34,804 nt of DNA from Candidatus Omnitrophota bacterium (GTDB lineage: Bacteria > Omnitrophota > JACPQZ01), in contig JACPQZ010000042.1 of the NCBI GenBank assembly GCA_016190205.1, forward strand, positions 1-34,804. The letters are read 5' to 3'. Each line of letters opens with the position of its first letter. Positions within the stretch are counted from its first letter, which is position 1. Below the pieces are notes generated by a model that did not search any database, was not told where the DNA came from, and worked only from the letters and a program-made list of their open reading frames with translations. Shown in pieces: positions 6,001-34,053 of this stretch. Made by a program: the position numbers and the translations under genes.

Positions 6001-6009
6001 GCCGCGTAA
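1..6009 (+). CDS. Giant multidomain fusion of PGAM-, GAPDH- and TIM-like modules (5' partial)
   Basis: The frame is open from base 1 with no stop, so the GTG at 112 in the ORF track is not a real start and the N-terminus lies upstream. Numbering from that GTG, the domains are as follows. Residues ~20-230 resemble phosphoglycerate mutase/histidine phosphatase (WHDVPLTDQG, PPGGENLL), but RHG is PTG and the second His is Leu. Residues ~277-633 are GAPDH-like, with Met455 in place of the catalytic Cys. Residues ~684-1050 are GAPDH with SCTTN (Cys846), IHAVTNTQ and WYDNE. Residues ~1120-1340 are a degenerate TIM (GAFTGKVS kept, GHSER lost). Residues ~1345-1695 are a TIM with GHSE (His1461), FEPVFAIGTGKT (Glu1570) and YGGSV but no NWK. 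A third TIM-like start with NWK (Lys1712) follows. Family assignments come from motifs read by eye. Which modules are active is inference. Confidence 0.85.
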   Translation, partial: QLDELRQGYAFAAPILQADLPRFEWAGKLWRDKYNELVELVPLPELPKAKPGIQPGVLVVVPTGEMAYSQPGSNRLAGWHDVPLTDQGRREAAAAGQLLILNELKLDRAFASDQSRSIETADIILKAGDFGEVPVTKQSELKGRNAGLMTGWRIPDMIDVFGRETCKYWSLGYSSSDARPPGGENLLDSQERIIPRFVNDVMREVVEGKNVLVSLDDDAIRAILVYLRRQEVDGPLMEEDVMALEIPRVPFIHISFEAGPDGRLTSNEIFVSGKQEVSAERETSGDGLGAVDGVSEPSIPFLERAPQDMKLNDPVRTVVSADLAIDLDEDTGIRSIKLSRQSRILDALIRQIEGNPNWAVTDIYGVGDVEAFARFLKNNKAHGRFKGNLEYMLEQPIAGSDTSEFGILQINGGTSIGIHRKTLARTHGIMPPDTQRLIHFAGAVSPIGSYPKDLKVMYIHPSRTPENVPLTAWGVSGTPRAHHKHLLRVLPMTSQGAAPILQILGKYFGITAVSIEAAMPSNQMGQDLDVQLNQQVGGGLSQLLPEVFGPGKAPVISGAGVSFSPVKGGTELSINVVLNKRDRPVTADEVNQALKKAVQEDPALSQFIYFPSDDEEPVASHSADRPQVIVDWKHTGVVEREFQGGRYTQVSLNVWISEWAYARAIWDLAIREELARNAPRDQDPAQARFLAFQRGHGAVPPRPESQYRAVYEPVRDAALSLGRKVKVAIQGGGGRSGKHAIWDLIGNPYVELVAINGVDNLVSLTEQLKHDDVYGDIDLETSYGLDESTRRNFIMLNGHRVWVFNIRDDMTKLPWRELGVDVVEEISGTQTTREKAYGHIDAGAQAVLINNPPGETLDATVILGVNDDVGLDGTGRIFSIGSCTTNNCATLTQVLARRYGSAGILTESGNTIHAVTNTQRLLGTTSVEPQSRRDRSGPYTALRTSSGAGVLTAQVVPGMKENIQVAALRAGNPTGSVVPLLIHLAPGIKTSVEEVNSLFQESAQTDLQGILAVEAGVMSSGDILGNRASAVLDPELTRVEVTEEGTLVYLVAWYDNEPAPSARMNDMAVLVTARKEAYRQGLTPQESRARELAEWYFTSNQKEGLTALRLEQLCRSRGIRIEPAQALKVLNRMAHERPLEFHREIADAQDKTHNLYSYRPVQLATVGPTTPKRGAFTGKVSMEHLVEGRAGAVWLGDDPLSDDKRTALAVKTARYLGLYPIVSINEATEVDPEQLKGPIERAQRSIARRQLLGEEGVARRRRIRSDAQRSELVDHLLGELKARLSPTYQLTKEDLLRTALAFRIESGMEAQGVQEVFKHLRAQLALEYGMAPEEAAKIPFIYTGKLADEIPENHVKALLAQEDVGGVFIPAEHFEVIRRLEGNEGDPPILLVEAPAQLSEREILDALEPYQKSFRIVLLAPFERLYALDQEQKGAPIDWEAQRPVAVFSQGMGEHRILDEILKPLVGQPQPFGWSARLSPELTPQALKGRVDGVLAGHSEIRKDLKDRIEALINAGRLVVPQGEVRETFVRSLVDRVIRKALEEAVGVRRPGAKNILAINVTNEEYEAGLTERVIEAQLVGNAFNGGFGALRNISLEEMLETLVVFEPVFAIGTGKTPTSDVVKSKLDHVENVLAGLIAGKLRMMEAGALSGLIQTHLSEGERAALEGATGAEKIERLARSLAKQQISRGYGGSVSKENVERLIAEAGGEVWLVGTASRSADEFAAVVDMSARRGAAAGVVPFAIANWKAAVNKHSPQEHVATLAPLIEPEFRSPDVRVGLSVAATQIPIVVQALNEATSEREGMTGVASSAGDGLVEDAITIPLEKLQVTFEQVNATGSGRMERVLRRQLANHRSSLLGQVILARQARDLVNISATPFSIVVSDAAITAQEGLREFEILRTLFGPEQVFTVSEYLGKIRPVSPKTLFVVTEKEQGLIGLGDFDLGRLYRTENFEEIHVFRCEGSVLSALRGISRAVPFQDHVQFLQELMQSIAEEVTRQAA

Positions 6010-13492: not shown

Positions 13493-13915
13493 ATGAAAAA
13501 GTGGGCGTTGGGTGTTTTGGTATTAGGGATCTTGCTGGGTTCGCCGGCCGCAGCGGAGAAGGGGCAGGAGGGTGAGGCCCTGGACGCGGCGACGGCCTGG
13601 ATTGCGCTTGTTGATCAAGGCGATTATGCGAAGAGCTGGCAGGAGGCGGCCGAGGCCTTCAAGAAGGGGGTAACGCAAGAGGAATGGGTGAATGCCCTGA
13701 CCGCGAACCGCAGTCCGCTGGGACAGGCCATGTCCCGTAAAGTGGCGACCAAGGAATCCAAGACCTCGCCTCCGGGGGCGCCCGAGGGAGAGTATGTCGG
13801 GATCAAATATGAAACGGTCTTCGAGCGCAGAGGGACGATGAATGAAGAAGTCACTCCGATGCGCGATAAAGACGGAAAGTGGCGGGTTTCAGGCTACTAT
13901 ATTTATACGCCATGA
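13493..13915 (+). CDS. Secreted DUF4019 domain protein
   Basis: This 140-aa protein has a clear signal peptide (MKKWALGVLVLGILLGSPAAA, cleavage expected near AAA-EK). A DUF4019 domain follows: ATAWIALVDQGDYAKSWQEAA, EEWVNALTANRSPLGQAMSRK, GEYVGIKYETVFE and KDGKWRVSGYYIY. The family is exported or periplasmic and of unknown function. The start is well set by GAGAGGAGG upstream of the ATG. It sits in the folate run and its TGA overlaps the folC ATG, but nothing in the protein links it to one-carbon metabolism. Confidence 0.85.
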   Translation: MKKWALGVLVLGILLGSPAAAEKGQEGEALDAATAWIALVDQGDYAKSWQEAAEAFKKGVTQEEWVNALTANRSPLGQAMSRKVATKESKTSPPGAPEGEYVGIKYETVFERRGTMNEEVTPMRDKDGKWRVSGYYIYTP

Positions 13916-15264
13916 CCTTTGAAGAAGCCCTGAAATATCTCGAGGGGTTCACGAACTACGAGCTCCTGATGCGCACTCCGTATGAGAGCGCCTATAAGCT
14001 CCAGCGGATGCAGGAGCTCTGCAGTCTAGTGGGCCATCCCGAGCAGGGGCTGACGTCCGTCCACATCGGCGGCACGAAGGGCAAGGGCTCGGTCGCCGCC
14101 ATGACGGAATCCATCCTCCGGGCGGCGGGGTTTAAAACGGGTCTCTACATCTCTCCGCACCTCGTGTCGATGCGTGAGCGCATCCTAATCTGCGGAAGGC
14201 CCATCCCAGCCGAGCACTTTGGACGGCTCATGGGGATTGTGAGAGATGCCTTGAAGAGCCGCGAGGTGAATCCGCGGCACGGGGCCTACACCTTTTTCGA
14301 GCTCGTGACCCTCGCAGCGTTTCTCGCCTTTCGGGAGGAGCAGGTGGACGTGGCTGTTCTTGAAGTGGGCCTGGGGGGCAGGCTCGACGCCACGAACGTC
14401 GTGTCGCCTCTCGCGGTGGGACTTGTCCCCGTGAGCTTTGATCATGCCTCCATCCTGGGGGTGACGCTCGAGCAAATCGCGCGGGAGAAGTGCGGCATCG
14501 TAAAAAAAAGAACGCCTGTTATTTCGGGAGTTCAGACCGACAGCGTGATGTCTCTTATCGATGACACGGCCCGAGAGCGCGGATGCCCCGTTTTGGCAGT
14601 CGAGAGAGACATCCACGTGGAGCGCAAGGGTTGGGACTTAGGCGGCGAACGGTTTAGCTGCGAGGGCCCATGGCCAGCGCGCTATGAGGATATGGAGGTC
14701 GCTCTCTTGGGGGCTCATCAGGTCCGGAACGCGGCCATTGCTATCGGCCTTATTGAAGTTCTTAAGAGCAGGGGTCTGGATATTTCCCTGGACGCGGTGC
14801 GTGTGGGTTTGAAGGCGGTGTCCTGGCCCGGGAGGCTCGAGGTGGTGGAAACCAAACCTTTTGTCGTTCTGGATGGGGCGCAGAATGTCGATTCGGCGCA
14901 GGCCCTTGTGCAGGCGGTCAAAGATCATTTCTGTTACCGAAGGCTTATCCTTATTCTGGGCATGTCTCAAGACAAGGACTTGGTGGGGGTGGGAAAAACC
15001 CTTGCGCCGCTTGCTGATGAAGTCATCTTCACCGAGTCAGGTCATCCCCGCGCGGCGAGCGCCGATTTTCTAAAGGGGGTGATGGGCGGCTTTTTTAAGT
15101 CAGGGCGCACCGTGTCCAATTGTGAAGAGGCCCTGGAGGCCGCCCGGCGGGCGGCGGATCCCGAGGATTTTATTTTGGTCACGGGCTCCCTCTATTTGAT
15201 CGGGCGTATCCGGAAGCTATTAAAGCCCGCCGAGGAATTGGAAGATGTCTCTCTTAGCAGATGA
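13912..15264 (+). CDS. folC: Folylpolyglutamate / dihydrofolate synthase
   Basis: This is a Mur-ligase-type ATP-dependent enzyme of about 450 aa. An N-terminal YLEGFTNYE segment is followed by the P-loop VHIGGTKGKGSVAAMTESIL, the FolC signature GLYISPHLVSMRERI, VLEVGLGGRLDATNVV, and FDHASILGVTLEQIAREKCGIVK. The C-terminal domain has WPGRLEVVETKPFVVLDGAQNVDSAQ. It adds glutamates to folates and possibly to dihydropteroate, retaining the cofactors used by neighbouring enzymes. I take ATG 13912, which forms an ATGA overlap with the DUF4019 stop, rather than the earlier start in the ORF track. The 3' end overlaps mnmE by 20 bp. Confidence 0.93.
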   Translation: MTFEEALKYLEGFTNYELLMRTPYESAYKLQRMQELCSLVGHPEQGLTSVHIGGTKGKGSVAAMTESILRAAGFKTGLYISPHLVSMRERILICGRPIPAEHFGRLMGIVRDALKSREVNPRHGAYTFFELVTLAAFLAFREEQVDVAVLEVGLGGRLDATNVVSPLAVGLVPVSFDHASILGVTLEQIAREKCGIVKKRTPVISGVQTDSVMSLIDDTARERGCPVLAVERDIHVERKGWDLGGERFSCEGPWPARYEDMEVALLGAHQVRNAAIAIGLIEVLKSRGLDISLDAVRVGLKAVSWPGRLEVVETKPFVVLDGAQNVDSAQALVQAVKDHFCYRRLILILGMSQDKDLVGVGKTLAPLADEVIFTESGHPRAASADFLKGVMGGFFKSGRTVSNCEEALEAARRAADPEDFILVTGSLYLIGRIRKLLKPAEELEDVSLSR

Positions 15265-16655: not shown

Positions 16656-18161
16656 ATGACCGAGCTCGTCCGGCTGGCGAGGGATTTTGGCTTTGCAGAT
16701 GAATCCCTGGTGTCGTATGGCCCGGACCGCATCAAGGTTTTTTTTGATCTTACGGCCGCCCCGGCGGGGGACGGCAGGCTCTTTGTCATTGCGGGCATGA
16801 CCCCTCCCCGCGAAGGGGTTGGAAAGTCGAGCGTCGCCCTGGCCTTGACGGATGCCCTCAACCGGCGCGGGACGCGCGCGCTTGCGTCCATGAGGCATCT
16901 CTCATTAGGCGAGGCCGTTGGGAAGGGGCCGGGAAAAGGGTACCTGCCGCGCATAGAGCCTGAAGAGGTCTTTCGCTTCGCGGTAAACCAGGACTCGGGC
17001 CTGGTGGCCTCGTGCCAGAACCTTTTCGCAGCGCTCGCAGATCAGGCGCTAAAGACGGGCGCCTTCGCTCTGGATCCACAGAGGGTTTTCGTGAAGCGCT
17101 GCCACGACCTCTGCGACGACACCCTTCGCCGCGCAGGTTTTGTGCTGGCCGGATCGAGCGAGCTGATGGCCATACTGGCCCTGGTGACGGATCCCGATGA
17201 GGTTGAGTCCCGCGTGGGCCAGATGATCGTGGGGTGCAACACCGCAGGGGGTGCGGTCCGCGTCCGTGACTTTGGCGCCGGGCAGGCGGCCGCGCGTATC
17301 TTAAAGTGCGCGGCGCGTCCCGATCTTATGCGCACGTCGGGCGGTTCGCCCTGTCTGGTGCATACGGCCAGTTTCGCGCATACCTCCCTGGGCTCATCCT
17401 CAATCACCGCCGACCGGATGGCCCTGGCGCACGGGGCCGTCTGCGTGACCGAGACCGGATACGGGTCAGAGCTCGGCCTGGAAAAGTTTTTCGACATCAA
17501 GGTTCGTGCCTGGGGGCGCTTTCCCGAGCGGGTTATCCTGGTGGTCTCGGTGAGCGCCATTCGCGCCCAGGGCGACGGGGAAGAGCTGGATTCAGGAATG
17601 GCCAATCTCGGCGCGCATGTGGAAAACGTAAGGAAATTCGGCTATGAGCCTGTTGTCGTGGTGAACCGCTTTGAATCTGATTCCGCAAAAGATCTGGAGG
17701 CATTGGCCTCCGGGATCCGTGCGTTAGGATTCCTTTCCTTTACTGTCTCCCTCGGTGAGAAGGGGCATCCGGGAATGGACGAACTTGCAGAGGCCCTTTT
17801 TGTAAGAAAAGACGCTTGCTCGTTCACCCTCGGCTATAAACTGGCCGCGCCTCTTCAAGAGAAGGTGGAGTCGGTCGCCCGCACGTTTTTTGGAGCGGAA
17901 GGCGTGGAATTTTCGAATGAGGCTCTTGAGGAGATGGAAAACTTACGTAACGAGGGATATGACCGTTTTCCCGTCATGTTCGTCAAAACGCCCTTTTCCC
18001 TTGGCCATGCATCTTCGCTCAAGGGGCGTCCGAAGGGGTACATGTTACCGGTCAAGGATATTTCGTATTGGGCCGGGGCAGGTGTTGTGCGCGCTGATTG
18101 CGGAGGGGTGCCGCTCATGCCGTCCTTCAAAACGGGCCCGGAAGTGATCAACCTGACATGA
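16656..18161 (+). CDS. fhs: Highly divergent formate-tetrahydrofolate ligase homologue
   Basis: This 501-aa protein aligns throughout with FTHFS (usual length about 557). VIAGMTPPREGVGKSS corresponds to the P-loop, VFVKRCHDLCDDTLR to WKRVxDxNDRxLR, LVHTASFAHTSLGSSS to VHGGPFANIAHGCNS, CVTETGYGSELGLEKFFDIKVR to VTEAGFGADLGAEKFxDIKCR, and PVMFVKTPFSLGHAS to the KTxYSxSD motif. Both classic signatures are degraded: GGAAGGGY reads GKGPGKGY, and the VAT-RALK-HGG motif reads VSVSAIRAQGD. HFTGD reads AVNQD, keeping the Asp. The P-loop Lys and the Arg of R-x-x-SLG remain. Operon position (fchA overlaps its stop as ATGA) argues for expression and a folate role. Retained activity, altered substrate or a structural role are all possible. 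Confidence 0.78.
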   Translation: MTELVRLARDFGFADESLVSYGPDRIKVFFDLTAAPAGDGRLFVIAGMTPPREGVGKSSVALALTDALNRRGTRALASMRHLSLGEAVGKGPGKGYLPRIEPEEVFRFAVNQDSGLVASCQNLFAALADQALKTGAFALDPQRVFVKRCHDLCDDTLRRAGFVLAGSSELMAILALVTDPDEVESRVGQMIVGCNTAGGAVRVRDFGAGQAAARILKCAARPDLMRTSGGSPCLVHTASFAHTSLGSSSITADRMALAHGAVCVTETGYGSELGLEKFFDIKVRAWGRFPERVILVVSVSAIRAQGDGEELDSGMANLGAHVENVRKFGYEPVVVVNRFESDSAKDLEALASGIRALGFLSFTVSLGEKGHPGMDELAEALFVRKDACSFTLGYKLAAPLQEKVESVARTFFGAEGVEFSNEALEEMENLRNEGYDRFPVMFVKTPFSLGHASSLKGRPKGYMLPVKDISYWAGAGVVRADCGGVPLMPSFKTGPEVINLT

Positions 18162-18781
18162 TCGTTGAAAAATCAGTCCAGCGTTTTATAAAGGAGCTTG
18201 CAAGTCCCAGCCCCGTGCCTGGAGGCGGCAACGTCTCCTGTGTAGTGGCGGCACAAGCTGCGGGGCTCGTTTCGATGGCTTGCCTCATTTCGGCGAGGCG
18301 TGAGGAGGCGCTGCGGAAGAGGACGGCCCTCAAGGAGCTTGCGGCGTCGGCGGACGTGCTTATCGATCTGGGATTAAGCCTTGCCGAGCTGGACGCAGAG
18401 GTCTTCACGCGGCTCATCCAGATTTTTAAAACGCGCTTTCGCAGCTCCGCCGAGAGAAGGCGCAGTCTAAGGGAGGCGCTCTCGTTTTGCGCGGCCGCAT
18501 GTCTCGACCTTTTGCTGCTCGCACGTGAGGGGGCCCTTTTGAGCGCGCGAGCCAGCCGGCTCGCCGGGCATGAGATGCTGTCGGAGATCCACACCGCCGT
18601 CTTTTTATGGGATGCTGCGTTTGAAGGCGCCCGGATCAATACCCGCGCGAATCTCGCGTGGCTTAAGGAGCGCGAGGTTGAGCGGCGGGTCCGCGGCTTC
18701 GTTGAGAAGGTATCCGTATCTTACAGGAAACAGAGGGCCATGACGCTCAAGGCATTGCGCGCGCGGGGTGCGCGTATATGA
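18158..18781 (+). CDS. fchA: Methenyl-THF cyclohydrolase FchA (formiminotransferase-cyclodeaminase family)
   Basis: This 207-aa, mostly helical protein begins with FIKELASPSPVPGGGNVSCVVAAQAAGLVSMAC, matching the F-x-x-x-LAS-x-x-PxPGGG signature of the cyclodeaminase/FchA family. In acetogens and purine-fermenting clostridia this stand-alone protein converts 10-formyl-THF and methenyl-THF. I use ATG 18158 (ATGA overlap with fhs) rather than the upstream start in the ORF track, because homology begins there. Its TGA also forms ATGA with folD. The gene matters here because the adjacent FolD has lost its cyclohydrolase residues. Confidence 0.85.
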   Translation: MIVEKSVQRFIKELASPSPVPGGGNVSCVVAAQAAGLVSMACLISARREEALRKRTALKELAASADVLIDLGLSLAELDAEVFTRLIQIFKTRFRSSAERRRSLREALSFCAAACLDLLLLAREGALLSARASRLAGHEMLSEIHTAVFLWDAAFEGARINTRANLAWLKEREVERRVRGFVEKVSVSYRKQRAMTLKALRARGARI

Positions 18782-19766: not shown

Positions 19767-20636
19767 ATGACTCTTAAAGAGAAACTTAAGCAGGGCAAGT
19801 TCGTTGTCACGGCAGAGCTCAACCCCCCCAAGGGGACTGACCTCACGCAGCTTTATCAAGGCGTGGACCTTTTAAAGGGCAAGGTAGACGCCTGCAATAT
19901 TACGGATGGGACGGGGGCGCTTATGAAGGCCGCGCCTGTCCCCATTGCCTCCCTGGTTAAGGAGCGGGGGATTGAACCTATCCTCCAGCTTACGTGCAGG
20001 GACCGCAACCGCATGGCGCTTCAGTCGGAGCTTTTGGGGGCCTGGTGCTTAGGCGTCCGGAACATGCTGGCCCTGGGCGGGGATCCCATTCAGATCGGGG
20101 ATCACCCGGAGGCCAAGCCGGTGTATGATCTGGACACCCTGGGACTTATCAAGGCGGCCAAGACGCTTTCACAGGGCAAGGATCTGGCGGGGAAGGAGCT
20201 CACCGGCTCGCCTGATTTCTTTGTAGCGGCAGCCGCCAATCCAGGTGCGGATGATCTCGATAGCGAGATGAGTAAGACGAAGGCCAAGATAGACGCCGGC
20301 GCGGATTTTTTCCAGACCCAGGCGGTGTTTGAGCAAGCCGTGTTCGACCGCTGGTGGACGAAGGTCAAGGGGATAGGAAAACCTATGATCCTGGGGGTCA
20401 TCCTCGTGAAGTCTGTCAAGATGGCTCAATATATGAATAAGCACATCCCCGGAGTTCATATTCCCGACCCGCTGATGAAAAAGCTGGACGAAGCCCCTGA
20501 TAAGGCCGAGGCCTGTGTCGAGATCGCCTCGAGCCTCATTCGTATGGTTAAGGGTGCCGTTCAAGGCGTCCACATCATGGCAATCGGCTGGGAAGACAAG
20601 ATCCCCGCGGTGCTTAAAAGGTGCGGCCTTGGATAA
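19767..20636 (+). CDS. metF: Methylene-tetrahydrofolate reductase
   Basis: This 289-aa MTHFR barrel has KFVVTAELNPPKGTD near the N-terminus (the family's catalytic Glu and PP turn), NITDGTGALMKAAPV, the LTCRDRNRMALQSELLGAWCLGVRNMLALGGDP core, and DFFQTQAVFE. It reduces 5,10-methylene-THF to 5-methyl-THF, the last folate step of the Wood-Ljungdahl methyl branch. No separate MetV-type gene with a Fe-S motif adjoins it; MetE/UroD-like methyltransferases follow instead. The ATG is about 15 bp beyond the inverted repeat at 19668-19752. The next gene starts within its last codons. Confidence 0.9.
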   Translation: MTLKEKLKQGKFVVTAELNPPKGTDLTQLYQGVDLLKGKVDACNITDGTGALMKAAPVPIASLVKERGIEPILQLTCRDRNRMALQSELLGAWCLGVRNMLALGGDPIQIGDHPEAKPVYDLDTLGLIKAAKTLSQGKDLAGKELTGSPDFFVAAAANPGADDLDSEMSKTKAKIDAGADFFQTQAVFEQAVFDRWWTKVKGIGKPMILGVILVKSVKMAQYMNKHIPGVHIPDPLMKKLDEAPDKAEACVEIASSLIRMVKGAVQGVHIMAIGWEDKIPAVLKRCGLG

Positions 20637-21555
20637 AAGTCTCCGCCACGGCTTCCGCCCGCGCGGGGCTGTGACAGGCGTGGGCAGTGTGGCGTGGACG
20701 GAGCCCGAGCGCGCCCTCGAGGTAATCCTGCGTTATTGCCCTGAAGTCCCTTACTGGCCGCAGCTTCCCTTAAGGGCCCAGTCGGAGGGTATGATTGAGC
20801 AGGCCTTGAGCGGAGCTGAATTGAGCGCCGAGAGTGCCGCTGGATTTTTCTATTGCATGGAGCGGCTCAAGGCGGGCCCGCCCGCCTTTCGTTATTTCAA
20901 GGGCCAGATCACGGGGCCGTGGACGCTGGCGTTTCAAACAAAGAAAAGTCCGGAGGCCGTGGTGGATAGCGTCCGCGCGAAGGCCCTGCAGCAGGCGCGG
21001 GAAATTAAGAGCCGCTCCTTAGTGCCCATCATCTTTTTGGATGAGCCCTGCTTGGTCCTTTTGGAAAAGCCCGCATTTCAGACCGAGAGAGAGAATCTCG
21101 CTCCACTCCTTAAGCATCTTATCGATGAACTGAAGGAGGAGGGGGCCCTGGTGGGAGTGCACCACTGCGCCGATGGCGCGTGGGACCTCATGCTCGAGTG
21201 CGGGGCTGATATAGTCCATTTTGACGCCTTTCATTTTATGGATTCGTTTCTTGAGTCACTGGAGGCCTTGCGCGGTTTTTTTCAGAATGGGGGGTGTGTC
21301 GCATGGGGGATTGTGCCGACGAGAGGCGAGCTCAGGCGGCTCAAAGCGGCAGAACTAGTTGAACGGATCCAAATGGCATTTCGAAAGCTGGCTGAAGTTG
21401 GCCAGGAACCCCCGGCCATTTTTGAGCGTTCCCTGGTCAGCCCGGCTTGCGGTCTTGCAGGTCTCGCCCAGGCGGACAATGTATGGGTTTTTGAAATCTG
21501 TCAGGCGGTATCGAGGCTCTTAAAGAAGCAGTTTAGTATAAAGGAGAAATTTTGA
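20629..21555 (+). CDS. UroD/MetE-like methyltransferase (methyltransferase 1 of 3)
   Basis: This 308-aa barrel protein resembles the cobalamin-independent methionine synthase C-terminal / UroD superfamily: GVGSVAWTEP, YCPEVPYWPQLP, FKGQITGPWTLAF, FLDEPCLV, GVHHCADGAWDLML and SPACGLAGL. His-x-Cys in VHHC and the Cys in SPACG match positions that bind zinc in MetE, so a thiol-activating metal site looks possible. It probably transfers a methyl group from a folate or corrinoid donor; substrate unknown. The TTG at 20629 is chosen because homology begins there and AAAAGGTG precedes it by about 8 bp. The ORF-track start lies deep within metF. It overlaps metF by 8 bp. Confidence 0.7.
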   Translation: MDKSLRHGFRPRGAVTGVGSVAWTEPERALEVILRYCPEVPYWPQLPLRAQSEGMIEQALSGAELSAESAAGFFYCMERLKAGPPAFRYFKGQITGPWTLAFQTKKSPEAVVDSVRAKALQQAREIKSRSLVPIIFLDEPCLVLLEKPAFQTERENLAPLLKHLIDELKEEGALVGVHHCADGAWDLMLECGADIVHFDAFHFMDSFLESLEALRGFFQNGGCVAWGIVPTRGELRRLKAAELVERIQMAFRKLAEVGQEPPAIFERSLVSPACGLAGLAQADNVWVFEICQAVSRLLKKQFSIKEKF

Positions 21556-22524
21556 ATGAAAACGACCGTAGTGGGAGGGTATCCCAAGATTCTCGAGGAT
21601 CAGCTCCTCCGCAAGACCCTTTGGGAGATTGATCGCGAGGGCGGTAAGGCCAATGGAAAGCTGGAAGAGGCGGTTCAAAAAGTCACGCGCTCCGCGATCC
21701 GCGAACAGGAGGAGGCGGGGCTTGACATTGTTTCCGACGGGGCCATCCGCTGGGAAGATGAAATTACGGCTTCCCTAAGGGGAATGGAAGGCATGGAGTT
21801 TACGGGACTCATCCGTTACTTTGACACGAACGTCCTCTACCGCCAGCCGGTCGTGACGCGTCCCGTAAAGCTCAAAATACCGGCCCTTGCGGCCGATTAC
21901 TCCTTCGCGGTGAAAAACGCGAAGAGGCCGGTAAAGGCTATTATGACAGGGCCCTTCACGATCGCGAAGGCCTCGCGGGATGAATATTACCAAAACGGGG
22001 AAAAGTTTGTTTTGGCCTTCGCGGAGGCCCTTCGGGGGGAGCGCGAGGCCCTCGAGCGGGCCGGGGCCAAAAAGATCCAGATAAATGAGCCATTCCTCTT
22101 AAGCGCCCCAGAAGAGTTTGAGCTTTTCCGCAAGGGGTTCCGGACCCTGGCCGAAGGGGCCAGGGCGGAGCTTGAGCTTTTCTTTTCCTTCGGCGATTTT
22201 TCGAAGGTGTTCCCCAAGATCATGGACGTGTGCGTCTGGCGCGTGGGGTTTGACTTAGGCACGGCGCGAAATCCCGAGCGCATCCTCAAAGACAAGGTCT
22301 GGAAAGGCAGAAAGCTCCTGGCCGGGGTCATAGATGCCCGCAACACGCGCCTTGAGACAAAGGAGGAGCTTCACGGAAGGCTCAAGGCGGCCTTGGCTTG
22401 CGTCGCGTCCCAAGACCTCGAGGTCGCGCCCAGCGCAAACCTGGAATTTCTGCCCCTCGACCGCTGCCGCGCGAAACTGAAGAACTTGGTAAAACTGACT
22501 CGTGATTTTAAGGAGGTTGTTTAA
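21556..22524 (+). CDS. MetE-core paralogue without zinc ligands (methyltransferase 2 of 3)
   Basis: This 322-aa protein is clearly homologous to the next gene and to the MetE catalytic barrel (VGGYPKI, ELEEAV-type helices, IMTGPFTIAKAS, KIQINEPFLL, AGVIDARNTRLETKEEL). The metal ligands are gone. The expected H-x-C region reads LFFSFGD (Phe and Ser), the Glu position reads FDLG, and the PDCGLKTR Cys region reads APSANLEFL. It follows the previous gene directly, and the third paralogue starts at the next base after its stop. I infer a non-catalytic or redesigned subunit, perhaps a partner of the intact paralogue. A distinct zinc-free methyltransferase is the alternative. Confidence 0.75.
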   Translation: MKTTVVGGYPKILEDQLLRKTLWEIDREGGKANGKLEEAVQKVTRSAIREQEEAGLDIVSDGAIRWEDEITASLRGMEGMEFTGLIRYFDTNVLYRQPVVTRPVKLKIPALAADYSFAVKNAKRPVKAIMTGPFTIAKASRDEYYQNGEKFVLAFAEALRGEREALERAGAKKIQINEPFLLSAPEEFELFRKGFRTLAEGARAELELFFSFGDFSKVFPKIMDVCVWRVGFDLGTARNPERILKDKVWKGRKLLAGVIDARNTRLETKEELHGRLKAALACVASQDLEVAPSANLEFLPLDRCRAKLKNLVKLTRDFKEVV

Positions 22525-23526
22525 ATGAGGCCCGTTTCAGAATGTCTTCCCACCACTTCGGTCGGAAGTTTCCCCAAGCCGGAGGAACTTAAAACGGCGC
22601 GCACGCGCTTCACGCGCGGCCAGATTAAAAAAGACGAACTCACGCGGCTCGAGAAAAAGGCCACCGAGTTCTGGATCCGCAAGCAGGAGGAGCTCGATAT
22701 TGACCTTGTGGTCGATGGCGAGATGTACCGCGGCGACATGGCGACTTACTTCGCTGAAAACGTGGGCGGGTGTGAAATATCCGGCCTCGTCCGCTCTTAC
22801 GGCAACCGCTACTACAAAAAGCCCATAGTTACGGGTCCCCTTAAGTTTAAGGGGGCGATCACGGTGGAGTGGTTTAAGTTCGCTCAAGGGTTGACCGACC
22901 GGCCCGTCATCGGGATGTTTACCGGGCCCTACACCATGATGGACTGGTCGTTTATCGAGTATTACAAGACGCGGGAGGAAGCGGCCATGGCCTGGGCTGA
23001 AGTGTTGCACGAAGAGGCCGCGGCGCTCGAGCGGGCCGGGGCCCAGTACATCCAGATTGATGAGCCGGCCGTGAGCGTGCGGCCCGAAGAGATGGACCTC
23101 GCCGTCCGCGCCATGGAGGTGGTGGTGGAAGGCCTCAAGGCCAAGACCATCACGCACATCTGTTACGGGGCTTTTGAAAAGATCTACCCAAAGGTCCTCG
23201 AAATCCCGGTGGACCGGATTGACCTCGAGATGTCCAACTCGGGCCTGGATCTTTTGGAGCACATGAAGAGAAATCCGTTCACGAAGGAGCTCGGCCTCGG
23301 CGTGGTAGACGTCCATTCCCACAAGCTGGAGTCCAAGGATGAGGTCAAGAAACGCATCCGTGATGTGATGAAGTATGTCCCGGCGGAGCGCCTCTGGGTG
23401 GATCCGGATTGCGGATTAAAGACGCGCACGGTGGACGAGGCAATTGAAAAGATGCGTGTAGTGTCGGAGGCAGCGAGAGAGGTCCGCAAGGAGCTCAAGG
23501 TAAAAGGAAAGGTATGCCGAAGCTAG
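22525..23526 (+). CDS. Core methionine synthase (MetE C-terminal domain type; methyltransferase 3 of 3)
   Basis: This 333-aa protein contains only the catalytic barrel of cobalamin-independent methionine synthase. TTSVGSFPKP opens it, FTGPYTMMDWSF and YIQIDEPAV follow, and a full zinc site is visible: THICYG (H-x-C), DLEMSNSG (Glu) and VDPDCGLKTR (Cys). Core-MetE proteins lacking the N-terminal folate domain are known in archaea and some anaerobic bacteria and take methyl groups from corrinoid donors rather than from methyl-THF triglutamate. That fits a Wood-Ljungdahl context, but the donor is not shown by the sequence. The end overlaps panB by 13 bp. Confidence 0.85.
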   Translation: MRPVSECLPTTSVGSFPKPEELKTARTRFTRGQIKKDELTRLEKKATEFWIRKQEELDIDLVVDGEMYRGDMATYFAENVGGCEISGLVRSYGNRYYKKPIVTGPLKFKGAITVEWFKFAQGLTDRPVIGMFTGPYTMMDWSFIEYYKTREEAAMAWAEVLHEEAAALERAGAQYIQIDEPAVSVRPEEMDLAVRAMEVVVEGLKAKTITHICYGAFEKIYPKVLEIPVDRIDLEMSNSGLDLLEHMKRNPFTKELGLGVVDVHSHKLESKDEVKKRIRDVMKYVPAERLWVDPDCGLKTRTVDEAIEKMRVVSEAAREVRKELKVKGKVCRS

Positions 23527-24317
23527 CAGCCTCCGACTTTAAGCGCAAGAAGGCCCAAAAAGAGCGCATCATCGTGCTCACGGCCTACGACTATTTCTGC
23601 GCCCGCCTCATTCAGAAGGCGGGGCTGGATGCCATCCTCGTGGGGGATTCTTTGGCAATGGTGGCCTTGGGGTACGAAAATACCCTTCCGGTCACCATGG
23701 ATGAAATGGTCCACCACTCGAAGGCCGTCCGGCGCGGGGCGCCGGATATGTTTATGATCGGCGATCTCCCCTATGAGGCCCTGCGCGGCTCACCCGGAGA
23801 GGCTTTGGAGGCCGCCGAGCGCTTTCTGGAAGAAGGCGGGTGCGACGCGGTTAAAGTCGAGGGCGCTTACCCCGAAGCCCTCGAGGCCGTCCGCCTGATG
23901 CGTAGGAAAAAGATCGAGGTCATGGGACATTTGGGTCTTTTACCTCAAGTTCTTTTAAAAGATGGGAAACCCCTCAAGGCGCAGGGGAGGGATCCAAACT
24001 CAGCCCGGCGCATCTTGGATGAAGCACGAAAGCTCGCTGGTCTTGAAATCTTTAGCCTTGTCCTCGAGTGCATCCCGGCGGACCTGGCGGCCGAATTGTC
24101 CCGGGAGCATCCCTTCCCAACCATCGGTATCGGCGCCGGGCCTCACACCGACGGCCAAATTCTTGTCACCGACGATATCCTGGGCCGCTATGACCGCCTG
24201 AAGCCAAAGCACGTCAAACAGTACTTAAACTCTATAGAGCTCAGCCTGGAGGCCATCTCCAAGTTCAAACAGGAAGTCCAGGCAGGTTCCTTCCCCACCC
24301 AAGCGCACTCCTTCTAA
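23514..24317 (+). CDS. panB: 3-methyl-2-oxobutanoate hydroxymethyltransferase
   Basis: This 267-aa protein has the normal PanB length. Recognisable motifs are IIVLTAYDYFCARLIQKAG, ILVGDSLAMVALGYENTLPVTMDEMVHHSKAV, FMIGDLPYEA, VKVEGA, VMGHLGLLPQ and IGIGAGPHTDGQILVTDDILG. It transfers the methylene carbon of 5,10-methylene-THF to ketoisovalerate, the first step toward pantothenate and coenzyme A. It closes the one-carbon run and starts inside the preceding gene, so it is probably cotranscribed. After its stop the composition becomes AT-rich and the accessory island begins. Confidence 0.95.
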   Translation: MPKLAASDFKRKKAQKERIIVLTAYDYFCARLIQKAGLDAILVGDSLAMVALGYENTLPVTMDEMVHHSKAVRRGAPDMFMIGDLPYEALRGSPGEALEAAERFLEEGGCDAVKVEGAYPEALEAVRLMRRKKIEVMGHLGLLPQVLLKDGKPLKAQGRDPNSARRILDEARKLAGLEIFSLVLECIPADLAAELSREHPFPTIGIGAGPHTDGQILVTDDILGRYDRLKPKHVKQYLNSIELSLEAISKFKQEVQAGSFPTQAHSF

Positions 24318-24689: not shown

Positions 24690-24971
24690 TTGAAGTACGA
24701 CGTTGAAATCCGGGAAGTGGTTTGGGATGACCTCGAGGAGGTCCCTCTGAACTTGCGGGCCCGGATCCTTCGGGCGCTTGAAAGGCGGCTGGCCGTCGCT
24801 CCCTCCAACTACGGCGTCAGATTGAGCCAGTCGCTCGCTGGTCTTTGGAAAATCCGTGTCGGCGATTACCGGGTGGTCTACGAGATCAAAGGTACTCACG
24901 TCACAGTCTGGGCGATTCGCAATCGCAGGGATGTCTACCCTCGAGTTCAGCAACGCTGGCTTAGACCGTAA
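24690..24971 (+). CDS. RelE/ParE-family toxin
   Basis: This 93-aa protein has the RelE core: DDLEEVPLNLRARILRALERRL helices, then LWKIRVGDYRVVYEIKGTHVTVWAIRNRRDVYPR, where the RVGDYRVVYEI strand and the basic RNRRDVY end are family hallmarks. RelE members cut mRNA on ribosomes; ParE members target gyrase. This one reads closer to RelE, but eye inspection cannot settle the target. The start is TTG 24690 with no strong ribosome-binding site, so translation probably depends on coupling to the antitoxin 6 bp upstream. Confidence 0.85.
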   Translation: MKYDVEIREVVWDDLEEVPLNLRARILRALERRLAVAPSNYGVRLSQSLAGLWKIRVGDYRVVYEIKGTHVTVWAIRNRRDVYPRVQQRWLRP

Positions 24972-29415: not shown

Positions 29416-30063
29416 ATGTATTATCCGATCAATCTGGACCTTAAAGGACGGCCAGTATTGGTCGTCGGCGGGGGCAGGGTCGCCGAGCGTAAGGTATTGT
29501 CGCTCATTGAGTACGGGGCACGCGTTACTGTTGTGAGCCCGGAGCTGACCCCAAAGCTTTCACGGTTTGCCAAAAGGGGTAGGATCAGGACTTTTAGCCG
29601 GCCAGTTCGCGTGAGAGATCTTAAAGGGCAGTTTGTCATCATCTGTGCCACCTCGAATCAAGCTCTCAATGCGCGTATCGGCCGCAGGGCGATTGCGAAA
29701 GGCCAGCTCGTCAACGTAGTAGATGCCCCAAGCGTTTCTAACTTCATAGCTCCTTCTGTCGTGCGGAGAGGGGCCCTCGTCATCGCGATTTCGACGGAAG
29801 GGCAGGTCCCGGCCCTCTCCAAGAGGCTCCGCAAAGACATTGAAAGGACCATCGGCCCCCGCTATACCGAGATCGTCCGCTTTCTGGCAAGGCTCCGCAA
29901 GGGGCTTCAGGATGAGGTCGAGGATATCCGCGTCCGCCGGCAGCTGATGAACCAAATTGTAGACCGCGACTTTCACCTTCTGGCAAACCGCGCCAAGAGG
30001 TCCGTTCTCGAAAAAAGGATCAAGCGTCTCATCAGGAAATTCACGAAGGACATCAAAGGATAA
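29416..30063 (+). CDS. Precorrin-2 dehydrogenase / sirohydrochlorin ferrochelatase (CysG N-terminal type)
   Basis: The 215-aa protein starts MYYPINLDLKGRPVLVVGGGRVAERKV, the standard NAD-binding opening of the family. CATSNQALNARIGRRA, LVNVVDAPSVSNFIAPSVV and IAISTEGQVPALSKRLRKDIE follow. It oxidises precorrin-2 to sirohydrochlorin and may insert iron, leading to siroheme or to the siroheme route to haem. The N-terminus matches homologues, so ATG 29416 is secure even though no ribosome-binding site precedes it. It heads the hem genes and hemA starts 10 bp downstream. Confidence 0.92.
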   Translation: MYYPINLDLKGRPVLVVGGGRVAERKVLSLIEYGARVTVVSPELTPKLSRFAKRGRIRTFSRPVRVRDLKGQFVIICATSNQALNARIGRRAIAKGQLVNVVDAPSVSNFIAPSVVRRGALVIAISTEGQVPALSKRLRKDIERTIGPRYTEIVRFLARLRKGLQDEVEDIRVRRQLMNQIVDRDFHLLANRAKRSVLEKRIKRLIRKFTKDIKG

Positions 30064-30073
30064 GCGAATCTGT

Positions 30074-31162
30074 ATGGGCATAGCGGTCGTCGGACTTAAT
30101 CACCGGACGGCGCCTGTTGCCGTCCGCGAAAAATTGGCGTTTCCCCACGCAGGCCTGGAGGATGCCTACCGGCGTTTGCGTTCTATCTACGGCATTGAGG
30201 AGGCGGTCATCCTCTCGACCTGCAACCGGGTGGAGATTTACGCCCAAAGGTCGGCGGGCCCGCTCGGGGAGGAGTTGGAGGCTTTTCTGGGCTCTTTTCA
30301 CGGGATCAAGCGGGAGCGCTTTGCCGCGAGCCTTTATCACTATCACGAGATGGATGCTATTCGTCACCTCTTCTCCGTAAGTTCCAGCCTCGATTCCATG
30401 GTGATTGGGGAGTCCGAGATCGTGGGCCAGGTCAAACAGGCGTACCGCGTGGCGGATGAGAACGGCATGTGCGGCAAGCAGTTTCATCATATATTTCAGA
30501 AATCTTTCCAGGTCTCCAAGAGGGTGCGAACGGAGACGGGCATCAGCCAGGGAGCGGTGAGCGTGAGCTCCATCGCCCTGGACCTGGCGCGGAAGATTTT
30601 CGGCAGTGTATGGGGCAAAGAGGTCCTCATTATCGGCACGGGCAAGATGAGCGCGAAGACCGCGCTCCTTCTTAAGCAGGGCGGGGTGGGCCGGGTGATG
30701 GTCGTGAGCCGGACGGAAGAAAGGGCCTGCGATTTGGCCCGGGCGATGGGAGGGGTCGCGCTCGCCGCGCAAGACTTGGACCGCGCCCTGGCCCGGGCGG
30801 ATATCGTCATTGCATCGAGCACGGCGCCGCAGTTTTTGGTGCGCCGGGCGACCTTGGAGGGCATACTTCCGGCGCGGGGATTCAGGCCGCTCCTTTTTGT
30901 GGATCTCGGCGTCCCGCGGAATGTGGACCCGGAAGTGGGTCAGATGAGTCAGGTCCTCGTGTATGATATCGATAGCCTCGCCGCGATCTCCGAGGAAAAC
31001 GCCTGCAGGAGGCAGGCGGATCTACACAGGGGACTTATGCTCGTCGACGAAAAGGCCGGCCAAGTGGCGGGGTGGTTAAACTCGGCGAACGGCCGGGCCG
31101 ATGGCCCGCAAAGCCTCCGGCCGCGGGCTGAAAGCGTCCCCAGTGCCCAGGCCGCTCTTTAA
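30074..31162 (+). CDS. hemA: Glutamyl-tRNA reductase with shortened C-terminus
   Basis: This enzyme reduces glutamyl-tRNA to glutamate-1-semialdehyde, the first committed step of tetrapyrrole synthesis. Motifs include AVVGLNHRTAPVAVREKLAF, VILSTCNRVEIYA (catalytic Cys), SSLDSMVIGESEIVGQVKQAY, LIIGTGKMSAKTALLL and VDLGVPRNVDPEV. At 362 aa it is some 60 or more residues shorter than usual. The sequence stops soon after GWLNSANG...SLRPRAES, so most of the C-terminal dimerisation domain is missing. The tail overlaps hemC by 62 bp. I found no obvious frameshift restoring the domain. hemL is not in the window. Confidence 0.9.
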   Translation: MGIAVVGLNHRTAPVAVREKLAFPHAGLEDAYRRLRSIYGIEEAVILSTCNRVEIYAQRSAGPLGEELEAFLGSFHGIKRERFAASLYHYHEMDAIRHLFSVSSSLDSMVIGESEIVGQVKQAYRVADENGMCGKQFHHIFQKSFQVSKRVRTETGISQGAVSVSSIALDLARKIFGSVWGKEVLIIGTGKMSAKTALLLKQGGVGRVMVVSRTEERACDLARAMGGVALAAQDLDRALARADIVIASSTAPQFLVRRATLEGILPARGFRPLLFVDLGVPRNVDPEVGQMSQVLVYDIDSLAAISEENACRRQADLHRGLMLVDEKAGQVAGWLNSANGRADGPQSLRPRAESVPSAQAAL

Positions 31163-32078
31163 GATAGGTTCCCGTGCGAGTCTGCTCGCCCGGACCCAGG
31201 CGCTCTGGGTTCAAGCAGCGCTTAAAAGAAATTTTCCACGCCTTAAGTTTGAGCTGGTTTTAGTCCGTACGGAAGGCGACAGGAATCTTGCCCCCTTCGA
31301 TCAGGTGGGGACGAAGGGGATGTTTACCCGCGCGATCGATGAGAAGCTGGTAAGGGGCGCGGTGGATCTGGCCGTGCACAGCCTCAAGGATCTGCCTGCG
31401 GAGCTTCCCGAGGGGGTGGTCCTGGCCTGTGTTCCCAGGCGGGAGGATCCGCGCGACGCGCTGGTAAGTCTCGCCGGGGAAGTGGACTCGCTTCGAGGCT
31501 TGGCCGCGGGGTCCAGGATCGGGACCTCGAGCCCGAGGAGGGCGGCACAGATCCGGGCCTTAAGACCTGATTGCGCCGTCACCGATGTGCGCGGTAATCT
31601 GGATACCCGGCTTAAAAAACTTGAGGCGCGCGAATTTGAATGCCTCGTCGTGGCCCTGGCAGGGCTCATCCGGCTTAAAGTGCGCGATAGGCATGTGGTC
31701 CCCATTCCGGCAGATGACATGCTGCCCTGCCCGGGGCAGGGGGCTTTGGGGTTAACGGCGCGCGAGGGTGATTTAGAAGCCCGGGAGCTTGCCGGCAGCA
31801 TTGAAGATGAGCGCTCACGGCTGGCGGCCGACGCGGAGCGTTCATTTCTAAAGGCCCTTGGGGGGAGCTGCCGCCTGCCCTGCGGGGCGCTGGCCGAGGT
31901 AAGCAAGGAGCGAATAAAAATGTCCGGAATTCTTCTCTCTACGGACGGTACGAAGAGCTATAAAGCCTGTGTGGAATCTCAAGCGGCACAGGCAGAAGAG
32001 ATCGGGGCGCGGCTTAAGGAAGAGCTCCTTAACTTGGGAGCGGGAGATGTGTTGCCACGTGAGACGAAGGCGGTTTAA
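31101..32078 (+). CDS. hemC: Hydroxymethylbilane synthase
   Basis: This 325-aa porphobilinogen deaminase has KIGSRASLLARTQALWVQ, VRTEGDRNL, KGMFTRAIDEKLVRGAVDLAVHSLKDLPAELP, RIGTSSPRRAAQIRALRPD, VRGNLDTRLKKL, DDMLPCPGQGALGLTAR and LGGSCRLPCGALAE. The Cys in GGSC is at the dipyrromethane-cofactor attachment position. It joins four porphobilinogens into hydroxymethylbilane. ATG 31101 lies within hemA. GTG 31143 is an alternative start nearer the homologous N-terminus, and neither has a clear ribosome-binding site, so coupling to hemA is likely. Confidence 0.93.
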   Translation: MARKASGRGLKASPVPRPLFKIGSRASLLARTQALWVQAALKRNFPRLKFELVLVRTEGDRNLAPFDQVGTKGMFTRAIDEKLVRGAVDLAVHSLKDLPAELPEGVVLACVPRREDPRDALVSLAGEVDSLRGLAAGSRIGTSSPRRAAQIRALRPDCAVTDVRGNLDTRLKKLEAREFECLVVALAGLIRLKVRDRHVVPIPADDMLPCPGQGALGLTAREGDLEARELAGSIEDERSRLAADAERSFLKALGGSCRLPCGALAEVSKERIKMSGILLSTDGTKSYKACVESQAAQAEEIGARLKEELLNLGAGDVLPRETKAV

Positions 32079-33600
32079 GAAAGGAAAGGTTTTCCTGGTC
32101 GGGGCAGGCCCCGGCGATCCGGGGCTTATTACGGTAAAGGGCCTTGAGCTTTTGCAAAGGGCGGATGCCGTGGTCTATGACGCCCTTGTGGATACCAGCC
32201 TTTTAGACCACGCCCGGGCGGGGGCGCGGCGCATTTTTATGGGTAAGCGGATGGGCCAGCCCTCCGCCAAACAGGGCGAGATCCACCGCCTGCTCATTCG
32301 CGAAGCGCGCAGGGGCCGCGCGGTCGTGCGGCTTAAGGGCGGGGATCCCTTGCTCTTCGGCCGCGGGGCGGAAGAAGCAAGCGCCCTGCGCCGGGCCCGT
32401 GTGCCTTATGAGATCGTCCCCGGCGTCTCGAGCGCCTGGGCGGTCCCCGCATACGCGGGAATTTCCCTCACAGACAGGCGCTTAAGTTCCAGTGTGATGC
32501 TCACGACGGCCCACGAGGCGTCTTTCAAGAGAAATTTAACCCCAATGCGTTGGAAACGGCTTGCGAGGGGAGCCGATACCCTCGTCATTTTTATGGGCCT
32601 AAGCCGCCTGGCCGACCTGACTCGTCACCTGATGCGGGCCGGTTTAAAGAGCAGCGCGCCTTGCGCATTGCTCTACTGGGGCACCACATCCAGGCAACGG
32701 TCTCTTTTTTCAACCCTTGGACGCGTGGCCCAACTGGCCGAGCGACTGCGTTTTAAGGCTCCCTCGCTTCTCATCGTGGGCCGGGTGGCCCGCCAAAGGC
32801 GTCTGGGGCGGTGGTGGCATCCGCCCGGGCTAAAAGGCAAAAGGATTTTGGTGACGCGGCCCCGCGGTCAGGCCGGTGCGCTCGCGCGGCTATTAAGGGC
32901 GAGGGGGGCGCGCGTCGTTACGGCCGCAACCATCCGCATCGAACCCGCTTCAAGTTACAAGGCGCTGGACCGTGCGATCTACGCGATCAGCCGGTTTGAC
33001 TGGCTCGTTTTTACCAGCGCAAACGGGGTCGAGGCGTTTTTCCGCCGCTGGAAGAAGGTTCGGCCGGGGCAGAGTCTTCCTGCAAAGCTGCGCGTGGCGG
33101 TGATTGGACCCGCGACACGCGCCGCGGCGCGGGGGTACAGACTCAAAGTGCACCTTTCACCCAAGCAGTACGTGGCCGAGGGGCTTTTGCAGGCCTTCCG
33201 CGACAAAAGGTTATCTTTAAAGGGAAAACATGTTCTGCTCCCGCGGGCCCGCGACGCCCGGCCGACAATGGTCCAGGGGCTTCGTCGGATGGGGGCAAAG
33301 GTGGAAGTGGTCGAGGCCTACCACACCGCGGTGGACCCGCGCGCGGCGCGGGCCCTGCGGGCCGTTTCGGCCAACGGGGGAGTGGATCTCGTCACATTCA
33401 CGAGTTCCTCCACGGCGGAGAATTTCGTTCGGATACTGGGGCCCGGAAAGGCGCAGAAAATCGCGCAGAGGGCCGTGACTGCAAGCATCGGCCCCGTGAC
33501 CAGCGAGACCCTGAACCGCTTGGGATTAAACGTGGACATCGAGGCGAATCCCTCGACCGTTCATGGACTTGTTCAGGCAATTGAACGATATTTTAACTAG
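32047..33600 (+). CDS. cobA-hemD: Fused uroporphyrinogen-III methyltransferase / uroporphyrinogen-III synthase
   Basis: The first ~245 residues are a SUMT (CobA) domain: VFLVGAGPGDPGLITVKGLELLQ, VVYDALVD, KQGEIHRLLI, VVRLKGGDPLLFGRGAEEA and VPGVSSAWAVPAYAGISLTDR. From about 257 a HemD domain follows: KRILVTRPRGQAGALARLLRARGA, WLVFTSANGVEAFF, AVIGPATRAAA and VTFTSSSTAENF. It closes hydroxymethylbilane to uroporphyrinogen III and methylates it to precorrin-2, the branch to siroheme and cobalamin, which the dehydrogenase at 29416 would continue. ATG 32047 with GGGAG upstream fits better than the ORF-track start and overlaps hemC by 32 bp. Confidence 0.93.
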   Translation: MCCHVRRRRFKKGKVFLVGAGPGDPGLITVKGLELLQRADAVVYDALVDTSLLDHARAGARRIFMGKRMGQPSAKQGEIHRLLIREARRGRAVVRLKGGDPLLFGRGAEEASALRRARVPYEIVPGVSSAWAVPAYAGISLTDRRLSSSVMLTTAHEASFKRNLTPMRWKRLARGADTLVIFMGLSRLADLTRHLMRAGLKSSAPCALLYWGTTSRQRSLFSTLGRVAQLAERLRFKAPSLLIVGRVARQRRLGRWWHPPGLKGKRILVTRPRGQAGALARLLRARGARVVTAATIRIEPASSYKALDRAIYAISRFDWLVFTSANGVEAFFRRWKKVRPGQSLPAKLRVAVIGPATRAAARGYRLKVHLSPKQYVAEGLLQAFRDKRLSLKGKHVLLPRARDARPTMVQGLRRMGAKVEVVEAYHTAVDPRAARALRAVSANGGVDLVTFTSSSTAENFVRILGPGKAQKIAQRAVTASIGPVTSETLNRLGLNVDIEANPSTVHGLVQAIERYFN

Positions 33601-33613
33601 TTAGGGGTGTGTG

Positions 33614-34040
33614 GTGAGTGATGTGTGGTGAGGTTGGGAGACGAGGGCTTAATGAAAGTTAAAAGCTATAAAGAATTAGAAGTTTGGAAAAAGGGAATAG
33701 AAATAGTGAACATGGTTTACGCGATAGCGAATAGCTTCCCGGACGGTGAGAAGTACGTCCTAGCCGCACAGATGCAGCGAAGCGCTCTGTCGATCCCCTC
33801 CAATATTGCTGAAGGATTTGTTCGTCAATATACTAAAGAGTACAAGCAGTTCCTATACATCGCGCGGGGGTCTTGCGCGGAACTTGAAACTCAAAGGATC
33901 GTTGCCATGCGGCGCAGTTTTGCACCACATGCTGATCTTGAGGAGTTAGGATCACATCTGGAGCACGAAAGCCGTATGCTGATGCGTCTTATTCAGAGGT
34001 TAAATGACCGCGCACTCATCACTCATCACACAGCACTCAC
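33614..34040 (+). mobile_element. IVS-like element: four-helix-bundle gene between heptameric inverted repeats
   Basis: The left arm GTGAGTGATGTGTGGTGAG (33614-33632) and right arm CTCATCACACAGCACTCAC (34022-34040) are complementary at 17 of 19 positions. Both arms are made of related heptamers (right side CACTCAT, CACTCAT, CACACAG, CACTCAC, GACTGAC). They enclose a gene related to the protein carried by 23S rRNA intervening sequences. It interrupts the hemD-hemB series. Mobility is inferred. Confidence 0.6.
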
Positions 34041-34053
34041 GACTGACGCGTAA
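33652..34053 (+). CDS. Four-helix-bundle protein, 23S rRNA intervening-sequence family
   Basis: This 133-aa protein has the IVP family pattern: SYKELEVWKKGIEIVNMVYAI, SFPDGEKYVLAAQMQRSALSIPSNIAEGFVRQ, KEYKQFLYIARGSCAELETQ, and a final helix LEHESRMLMRLIQRLND. The family is found in IVS elements inserted in 23S rRNA genes and as free-standing genes. Its function is unknown, though RNA binding is often suspected. ATG 33652 (GAGGG upstream) is preferred to the GTG at 33625. The last residues, THHTALTTDA, are encoded by the right-hand repeat itself. Confidence 0.88.
   Translation: MKVKSYKELEVWKKGIEIVNMVYAIANSFPDGEKYVLAAQMQRSALSIPSNIAEGFVRQYTKEYKQFLYIARGSCAELETQRIVAMRRSFAPHADLEELGSHLEHESRMLMRLIQRLNDRALITHHTALTTDA

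What the first reader, a model, noticed from the sequence alone, without database searches (positions are those of the whole stretch)
20629..23526. Three tandem MetE/UroD-like proteins, one stripped of zinc ligands
The third protein has a complete H-x-C / E / C zinc site and the first keeps H-x-C and Cys. The second has Phe/Ser, Asp and Ala at these positions. A zinc-less MetE paralogue encoded directly before the intact one suggests a heteromeric methyltransferase, possibly taking methyl groups from the corrinoid arm of the Wood-Ljungdahl pathway.
Basis: partly seen in the sequence, partly recalled or inferred. Interest (0 to 1): 0.7.

Follow-up and report, generated by a model that had tools for sequence, protein, structure and literature searches.

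The report
Bacterial split methionine synthase plus MesB-like gene
Two of the three genes encode the two halves of a known kind of methionine-making enzyme as separate proteins (the half without zinc is the normal folate-side half), while the first gene is an altered relative of another methionine synthase whose usual vitamin-B12 protein partner was not found in this genome.

Summary
Proteins 2 and 3 are the non-catalytic and catalytic halves of a split MetE, known mainly from archaea (Price 2021). The 'stripped' protein carries the residue signature of the N-terminal half of ordinary MetE, which is itself zinc-less. It groups with that half in a tree (SH-aLRT 100) and is almost never found without its partner: 79 of 80 loci, the last cut by a contig end. 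The corrinoid donor is not supported. The held genome (92.8% complete) shows no iron-sulfur corrinoid protein, no methyl-corrinoid cap domain and a single pterin-binding protein. The operon is a folate one-carbon operon. Methyl-THF is therefore the likely donor. Protein 1 is a divergent MesB-like protein. Across 286 genomes of the phylum, strong MesB matches accompany the corrinoid protein in 105 of 108 cases. This genome is one of three exceptions, and all three have an altered zinc-site loop. Nothing was tested biochemically.

The parts
20629..21555 (+). P1: divergent MesB-like UroD/MetE-superfamily protein, zinc ligands H-x-C / D / C kept; MesB loop HCCGNTDW changed to HHCADGAW; a segment of roughly 30-40 residues missing relative to its relatives
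21556..22524 (+). P2: zinc-less, MetE-N-type (folate-side, non-catalytic) subunit of split MetE
22525..23526 (+). P3: catalytic subunit of split MetE (complete zinc and homocysteine sites)
19767..20636 (+). methylene-THF reductase (MTHFR, PF02219 152 bits), overlapping P1
18778..19662 (+). FolD (methylene-THF dehydrogenase/cyclohydrolase)
18098..18781 (+). FTCD_C / FchA-like methenyl-THF cyclohydrolase
16656..18161 (+). formate-THF ligase (PF01268)
13879..15264 (+). FolC (folylpolyglutamate synthase)
23514..24317 (+). PanB ketopantoate hydroxymethyltransferase, overlapping P3

Best explanation
P2 and P3 are the two halves of a cobalamin-independent methionine synthase (MetE) made as separate, translationally adjacent proteins. 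P3 binds zinc and homocysteine and carries out the methyl transfer. P2 is the zinc-less half, orthologous to the N-terminal barrel of ordinary MetE, which helps hold the methylfolate and completes the active-site cleft. The methyl group most likely comes from 5-methyl-THF, made by the enzymes encoded just upstream (formate-THF ligase, cyclohydrolase, FolD, MTHFR). Shown here by sequence: the identity of the two halves, their co-occurrence, the catalytic residues, the genome context and the missing corrinoid partners. Inferred: the physical complex, the donor and the activity. P1 is a separate, divergent MesB-like protein that kept a zinc site in a genome where the MesB partner was not found. 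It is probably a retained or repurposed relative, not a third subunit.
For: Tree: P2 rows plus MetE-N against P3 rows plus MetE-C are split by a branch with SH-aLRT 100. MetE-N-type residues in P2 homologues: D at 665 (80/89), R at 694 (89/89), L at 561 (78/89), basic at K117 (R 89/89) and K20 (R 85/89), D at 120 (89/89; D/N in MetE-N). P3 homologues keep S433, E484, R515, W561, D599, H641, C643, H694, C726 in 73-74 of 74 and E665 in 64 of 74. Partner present in 79 of 80 P2 loci and in 9 of 9 genomes of the phylum. Of 58 relatives, 9 have split and 9 full-length MetE, none both. MTHFR-like genes flank the pair in five further loci from several phyla: L114, L128, L135, L138, L145. No CoFeSP, no B12-binding_2, one pterin-binding protein in the genome. 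A model of P2-P3 read through the stop matches full-length MetE end to end in order (Z 38, 634 residues).
Against: P2 scores higher with Meth_synt_2 than with Meth_synt_1, so it would fail the literal screen Price et al. used for the folate subunit; they note that such cases exist. The fusion model has pTM 0.53 and overall rmsd about 28 A to MetE, so the mutual arrangement of the halves is not confirmed. P3 lacks E605 and C516, which I recall as lining the folate site. The genome is 92.8% complete. No P. furiosus PF1268/PF1269 sequence was at hand for direct comparison. Adjacency does not show binding.
Confidence: 0.86

Rival explanations
1. [quoted passage not shown]
For: The formate-to-methyl-THF branch genes are present. 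P1 belongs to a family (MesB) tied to that corrinoid protein (PMC7857596).
Against: No AcsC/AcsD, no methyl-corrinoid cap domain, one pterin-binding protein only. The B12 proteins examined are methylmalonyl-CoA mutase and radical SAM. None of the 9 split-MetE genomes of the phylum has a CoFeSP-grade match.
Confidence: 0.04
2. P2 is a catalytically dead paralogue of P3 from a recent local duplication, acting as a regulator or relic.
For: P2 and P3 are homologous and adjacent; P2 has a Meth_synt_2 hit.
Against: P2 and P3 are only 32% identical in the window. P2 homologues form their own set with MetE-N across many phyla and keep dozens of invariant columns in nine genomes.
Confidence: 0.03
3. 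P1 is a third functional subunit or an alternative methionine synthase that now takes methyl groups directly from methyl-THF or another donor.
For: Its gene overlaps MTHFR and abuts P2. Zinc ligands and the homocysteine-side Ser/Asp are intact; the corrinoid partner was not found; the loop after the zinc Cys is altered as in the other two CoFeSP-less genomes.
Against: P1 is not next to P2 in any of the 80 other P2 loci nor present in the other eight split-MetE genomes of the phylum.
Confidence: 0.25

Closest known systems
Split MetE (e.g. Pyrococcus furiosus PF1268/PF1269; Price et al. 2021, PMC7857596)
   Same: Two adjacent genes of about 320-335 aa, non-catalytic MetE-N-type protein first and zinc-bearing catalytic protein second; no other established methionine synthase (MetH, full-length MetE) found in the genome.
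   Different: Described mainly from archaea plus Sulfobacillus; here in a bacterium of the phylum Omnitrophota, with relatives in several further bacterial phyla. P2 scores better with Meth_synt_2 than Meth_synt_1.
MetE (E. coli, T. maritima; cobalamin-independent methionine synthase)
   Same: Same two barrels in the same order; the N-terminal barrel of MetE also lacks the zinc ligands.
   Different: One polypeptide of about 750 aa with a linker, instead of two proteins.
MesB core methionine synthase (Dehalococcoides mccartyi; PMC7857596, PMC7005905)
   Same: P1 has the H-x-C / D / C zinc ligands with closely similar spacing (2, 19, 75 against 2, 19, 76 residues).
   Different: P1 lacks roughly 30-40 residues, has HHCADGAW instead of HCCGNTDW, and its genome has no detected CoFeSP.

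Membership tests
split MetE (P2+P3) | catalytic subunit with complete zinc and homocysteine sites, at most 400 aa | tested here: met
   P3, 333 aa, H/C/E/C, S433, E484, D599, H694
split MetE (P2+P3) | separate non-catalytic subunit of the MetE-N lineage, at most 400 aa | tested here: met
   tree (SH-aLRT 100); signature residues; 322 aa
split MetE (P2+P3) | Price et al. screen: Meth_synt_1 must outscore Meth_synt_2 in the folate subunit (a search filter, not a biological definition; its authors say it misses true cases) | tested here: not met
   77.6 against 97.6 bits; the authors give AMET1_0515 as a similar miss
split MetE (P2+P3) | the two genes co-occur and are usually adjacent | tested here: met
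   79 of 80 loci; 9 of 9 genomes of the phylum
split MetE (P2+P3) | catalytic subunit at least 200 bits to PF1269 | not tested
   sequence not held; NCBIfam PRK04326 gives 398.8 bits against cut-off 406
split MetE (P2+P3) | physical complex and methylfolate-dependent activity | not testable with these tools
   fusion model inconclusive on arrangement
MesB (P1) | zinc ligands HC(D/E)C | tested here: met
   H177 C179 D198 C273
MesB (P1) | genome encodes CoFeSP (AcsC/AcsD) | tested here: not met
   (genome 92.8% complete); P1 is therefore called MesB-like only
MesB (P1) | phmmer score against the D. mccartyi enzyme above the published threshold | not tested
   reference sequence not held

The most novel reading that the evidence does not exclude
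P1 represents a MesB that has left the corrinoid protein behind and works with another methyl donor (for example methyl-THF delivered by the overlapping MTHFR, or the P2 folate subunit). The loop right after the zinc cysteine (GNT) would then be the part of MesB that recognises the corrinoid protein, since it is altered in all three genomes of the phylum found to keep MesB without that protein.
Probability: 0.2. Interest if true: 0.6.

Novelty: new member of a known kind. Interest (0 to 1): 0.36.

Why it matters
It shows split MetE to be spread over bacterial lineages where it was hardly known, and it explains a zinc-less 'paralogue' as a normal enzyme half. It also gives a testable signature: the loop after the MesB zinc cysteine tracks presence of the Wood-Ljungdahl corrinoid protein, which bears on the open question of how MesB picks its methyl donor.

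Tried and rejected
Single-sequence AlphaFold model of P1: mean pLDDT 45, useless. P2-P3 read-through model: good domains, but the mutual arrangement does not reproduce MetE (pTM 0.53, rmsd about 28 A), so not used as evidence of a complex. Alignment A5 (fusions plus single subunits) put the single P2 rows on the P3 half and was dropped. P1 had no PDB sequence match. Recent duplication of P3 as source of P2: rejected by identity and tree. Corrinoid donor for P2/P3: rejected on genome content.

Full report
What is there. The window carries one tight + strand cluster: folC, mnmE, formate-THF ligase, FTCD_C/FchA-like cyclohydrolase, folD, MTHFR, P1, P2, P3, panB. MTHFR and P1 overlap, P1/P2 and P2/P3 abut without a gap, and P3 overlaps panB. 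That is the third ligand in the MesB family (HCDC; PMC7857596), with spacing 2/19/75 against 2/19/76 in MesB.

P2 and P3 are split MetE. Price et al. 2021 (PMC7857596) describe MetE enzymes encoded as two adjacent genes, an N-type folate subunit and a catalytic subunit, mainly in archaea and in one Sulfobacillus. The N-terminal barrel of one-chain MetE lacks the zinc ligands (MetE-N rows), so a zinc-less partner is expected. Three tests agree. First, in a tree of 84 sequences, P2 homologues and MetE-N lie on one side of a branch with SH-aLRT 100, P3 homologues and MetE-C on the other (quick search, midpoint drawing). Second, P2 homologues share MetE-N states at the zinc, proton-donor and folate positions (D665, R694, L561, basic K117 and K20), while P3 homologues keep the catalytic set. 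The position roles beyond the zinc and homocysteine ligands given by Price et al. are from my memory of MetE annotations. Third, the partner rule: a scan of named genomes with P2 orthologues gave 209 relatives, of which the best 80 were kept. Those 80 carry titles from Omnitrophota, Chloroflexota, Zixibacteria, Actinomycetota, Armatimonadota, Elusimicrobia, Thermoplasmata and others. In 75 P3 lies downstream on the same strand; in L105 its start is present before the contig ends; three Zixibacteria have P3 elsewhere in the genome; L157 ends with P2. Most are metagenome-assembled genomes, so single taxon labels may be wrong.

Organism. Of 58 relatives, nine carry the P2+P3 pair and nine full-length MetE, none both.

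Methyl donor. The genome gives no CdhD/AcsC/AcsD match and no B12-binding_2 domain even at E = 1, which argues against MetH and methyl-corrinoid proteins. It has one pterin-binding protein of 328 aa, by size a dihydropteroate synthase, so no separate AcsE or MetH pterin domain was seen. The B12-binding hits examined sit with methylmalonyl-CoA mutase or in radical SAM proteins. Upstream genes lead from formate to methyl-THF, and MTHFR-like genes flank the pair in five further loci. Methyl-THF as donor is the best inference. The corrinoid-arm proposal is not supported for P2/P3. Completeness of 92.8% leaves some room.

Structure. P2-P3 read through its TAA stop with six similarly arranged loci gave pLDDT 83.7, pTM 0.53. 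It matches full-length MetE end to end and in order (Z 38, 634 residues) but with rmsd about 28 A, so each half matches and their mutual placement is not tested.

P1. A profile of P1 and twelve relatives finds strong matches in 108 of 286 Omnitrophota genomes; 105 of these have CoFeSP, 3 do not (G000, G052, G126), and 12 have CoFeSP without a strong match (Fisher p about 6e-60, which ignores relatedness). The loop at the zinc site is HCCGNTDW in 96 of 103 sequences (86 of about 93 genomes after removing duplicates by hand). The three CoFeSP-less genomes have HHCADGAW (window), HCCGDADW (G052) and HCCADADW (G126); one CoFeSP genome (G268) has HCCSDTDW. G052 and G126 are one family, so this is about two independent events. 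The loop was looked at after the exceptions were known, so it is an exploratory finding. P1 also lacks a segment of roughly 30-40 residues, scores 281 bits over its main stretch against about 385-530 for the complete full-length relatives, and never adjoins P2 in the other 80 loci. I call it MesB-like, possibly repurposed; its donor is unknown.

Verdict. An ordinary enzyme in an unusual host, correctly noticed but misread as a new heteromer with a corrinoid donor. The MesB-like neighbour is the more interesting part.

Noticed in passing
(286 Omnitrophota genomes; L078, L212, window 20629-21555): MesB and CoFeSP co-occur almost perfectly (105 of 108). The loop after the MesB zinc Cys (HCCGNTDW) is altered in all three CoFeSP-less genomes.
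   Followed up: partly
112-6009: A single 1965-aa ORF holds a histidine-phosphatase domain, a GAPDH (both domains) and a triosephosphate-isomerase match: an unusual glycolytic fusion.
   Followed up: no
L078, L272, L079, L081, L082: mesB lies beside arginase/agmatinase-family and pyruvoyl arginine decarboxylase genes, often followed by hypF and hypD; the order is kept in the CoFeSP-less genomes G052 and G126.
   Followed up: partly
L153, L154: In two other Omnitrophota the split MetE pair again precedes panB and the same tetrapyrrole genes as in the window; in L153 ORFs resembling glycine-cleavage genes lie upstream (by eye).
   Followed up: partly
29416-33600: Siroheme/heme genes downstream: precorrin-2 dehydrogenase-like, HemA, HemC and a TP_methylase-HemD fusion.
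   Followed up: no
24690-24971: Small ParE-like toxin ORF (PF05016, 39 bits); its antitoxin partner was not looked for.
   Followed up: no
33625-34053: 23S rRNA-intervening-sequence (IVP) protein.
   Followed up: no
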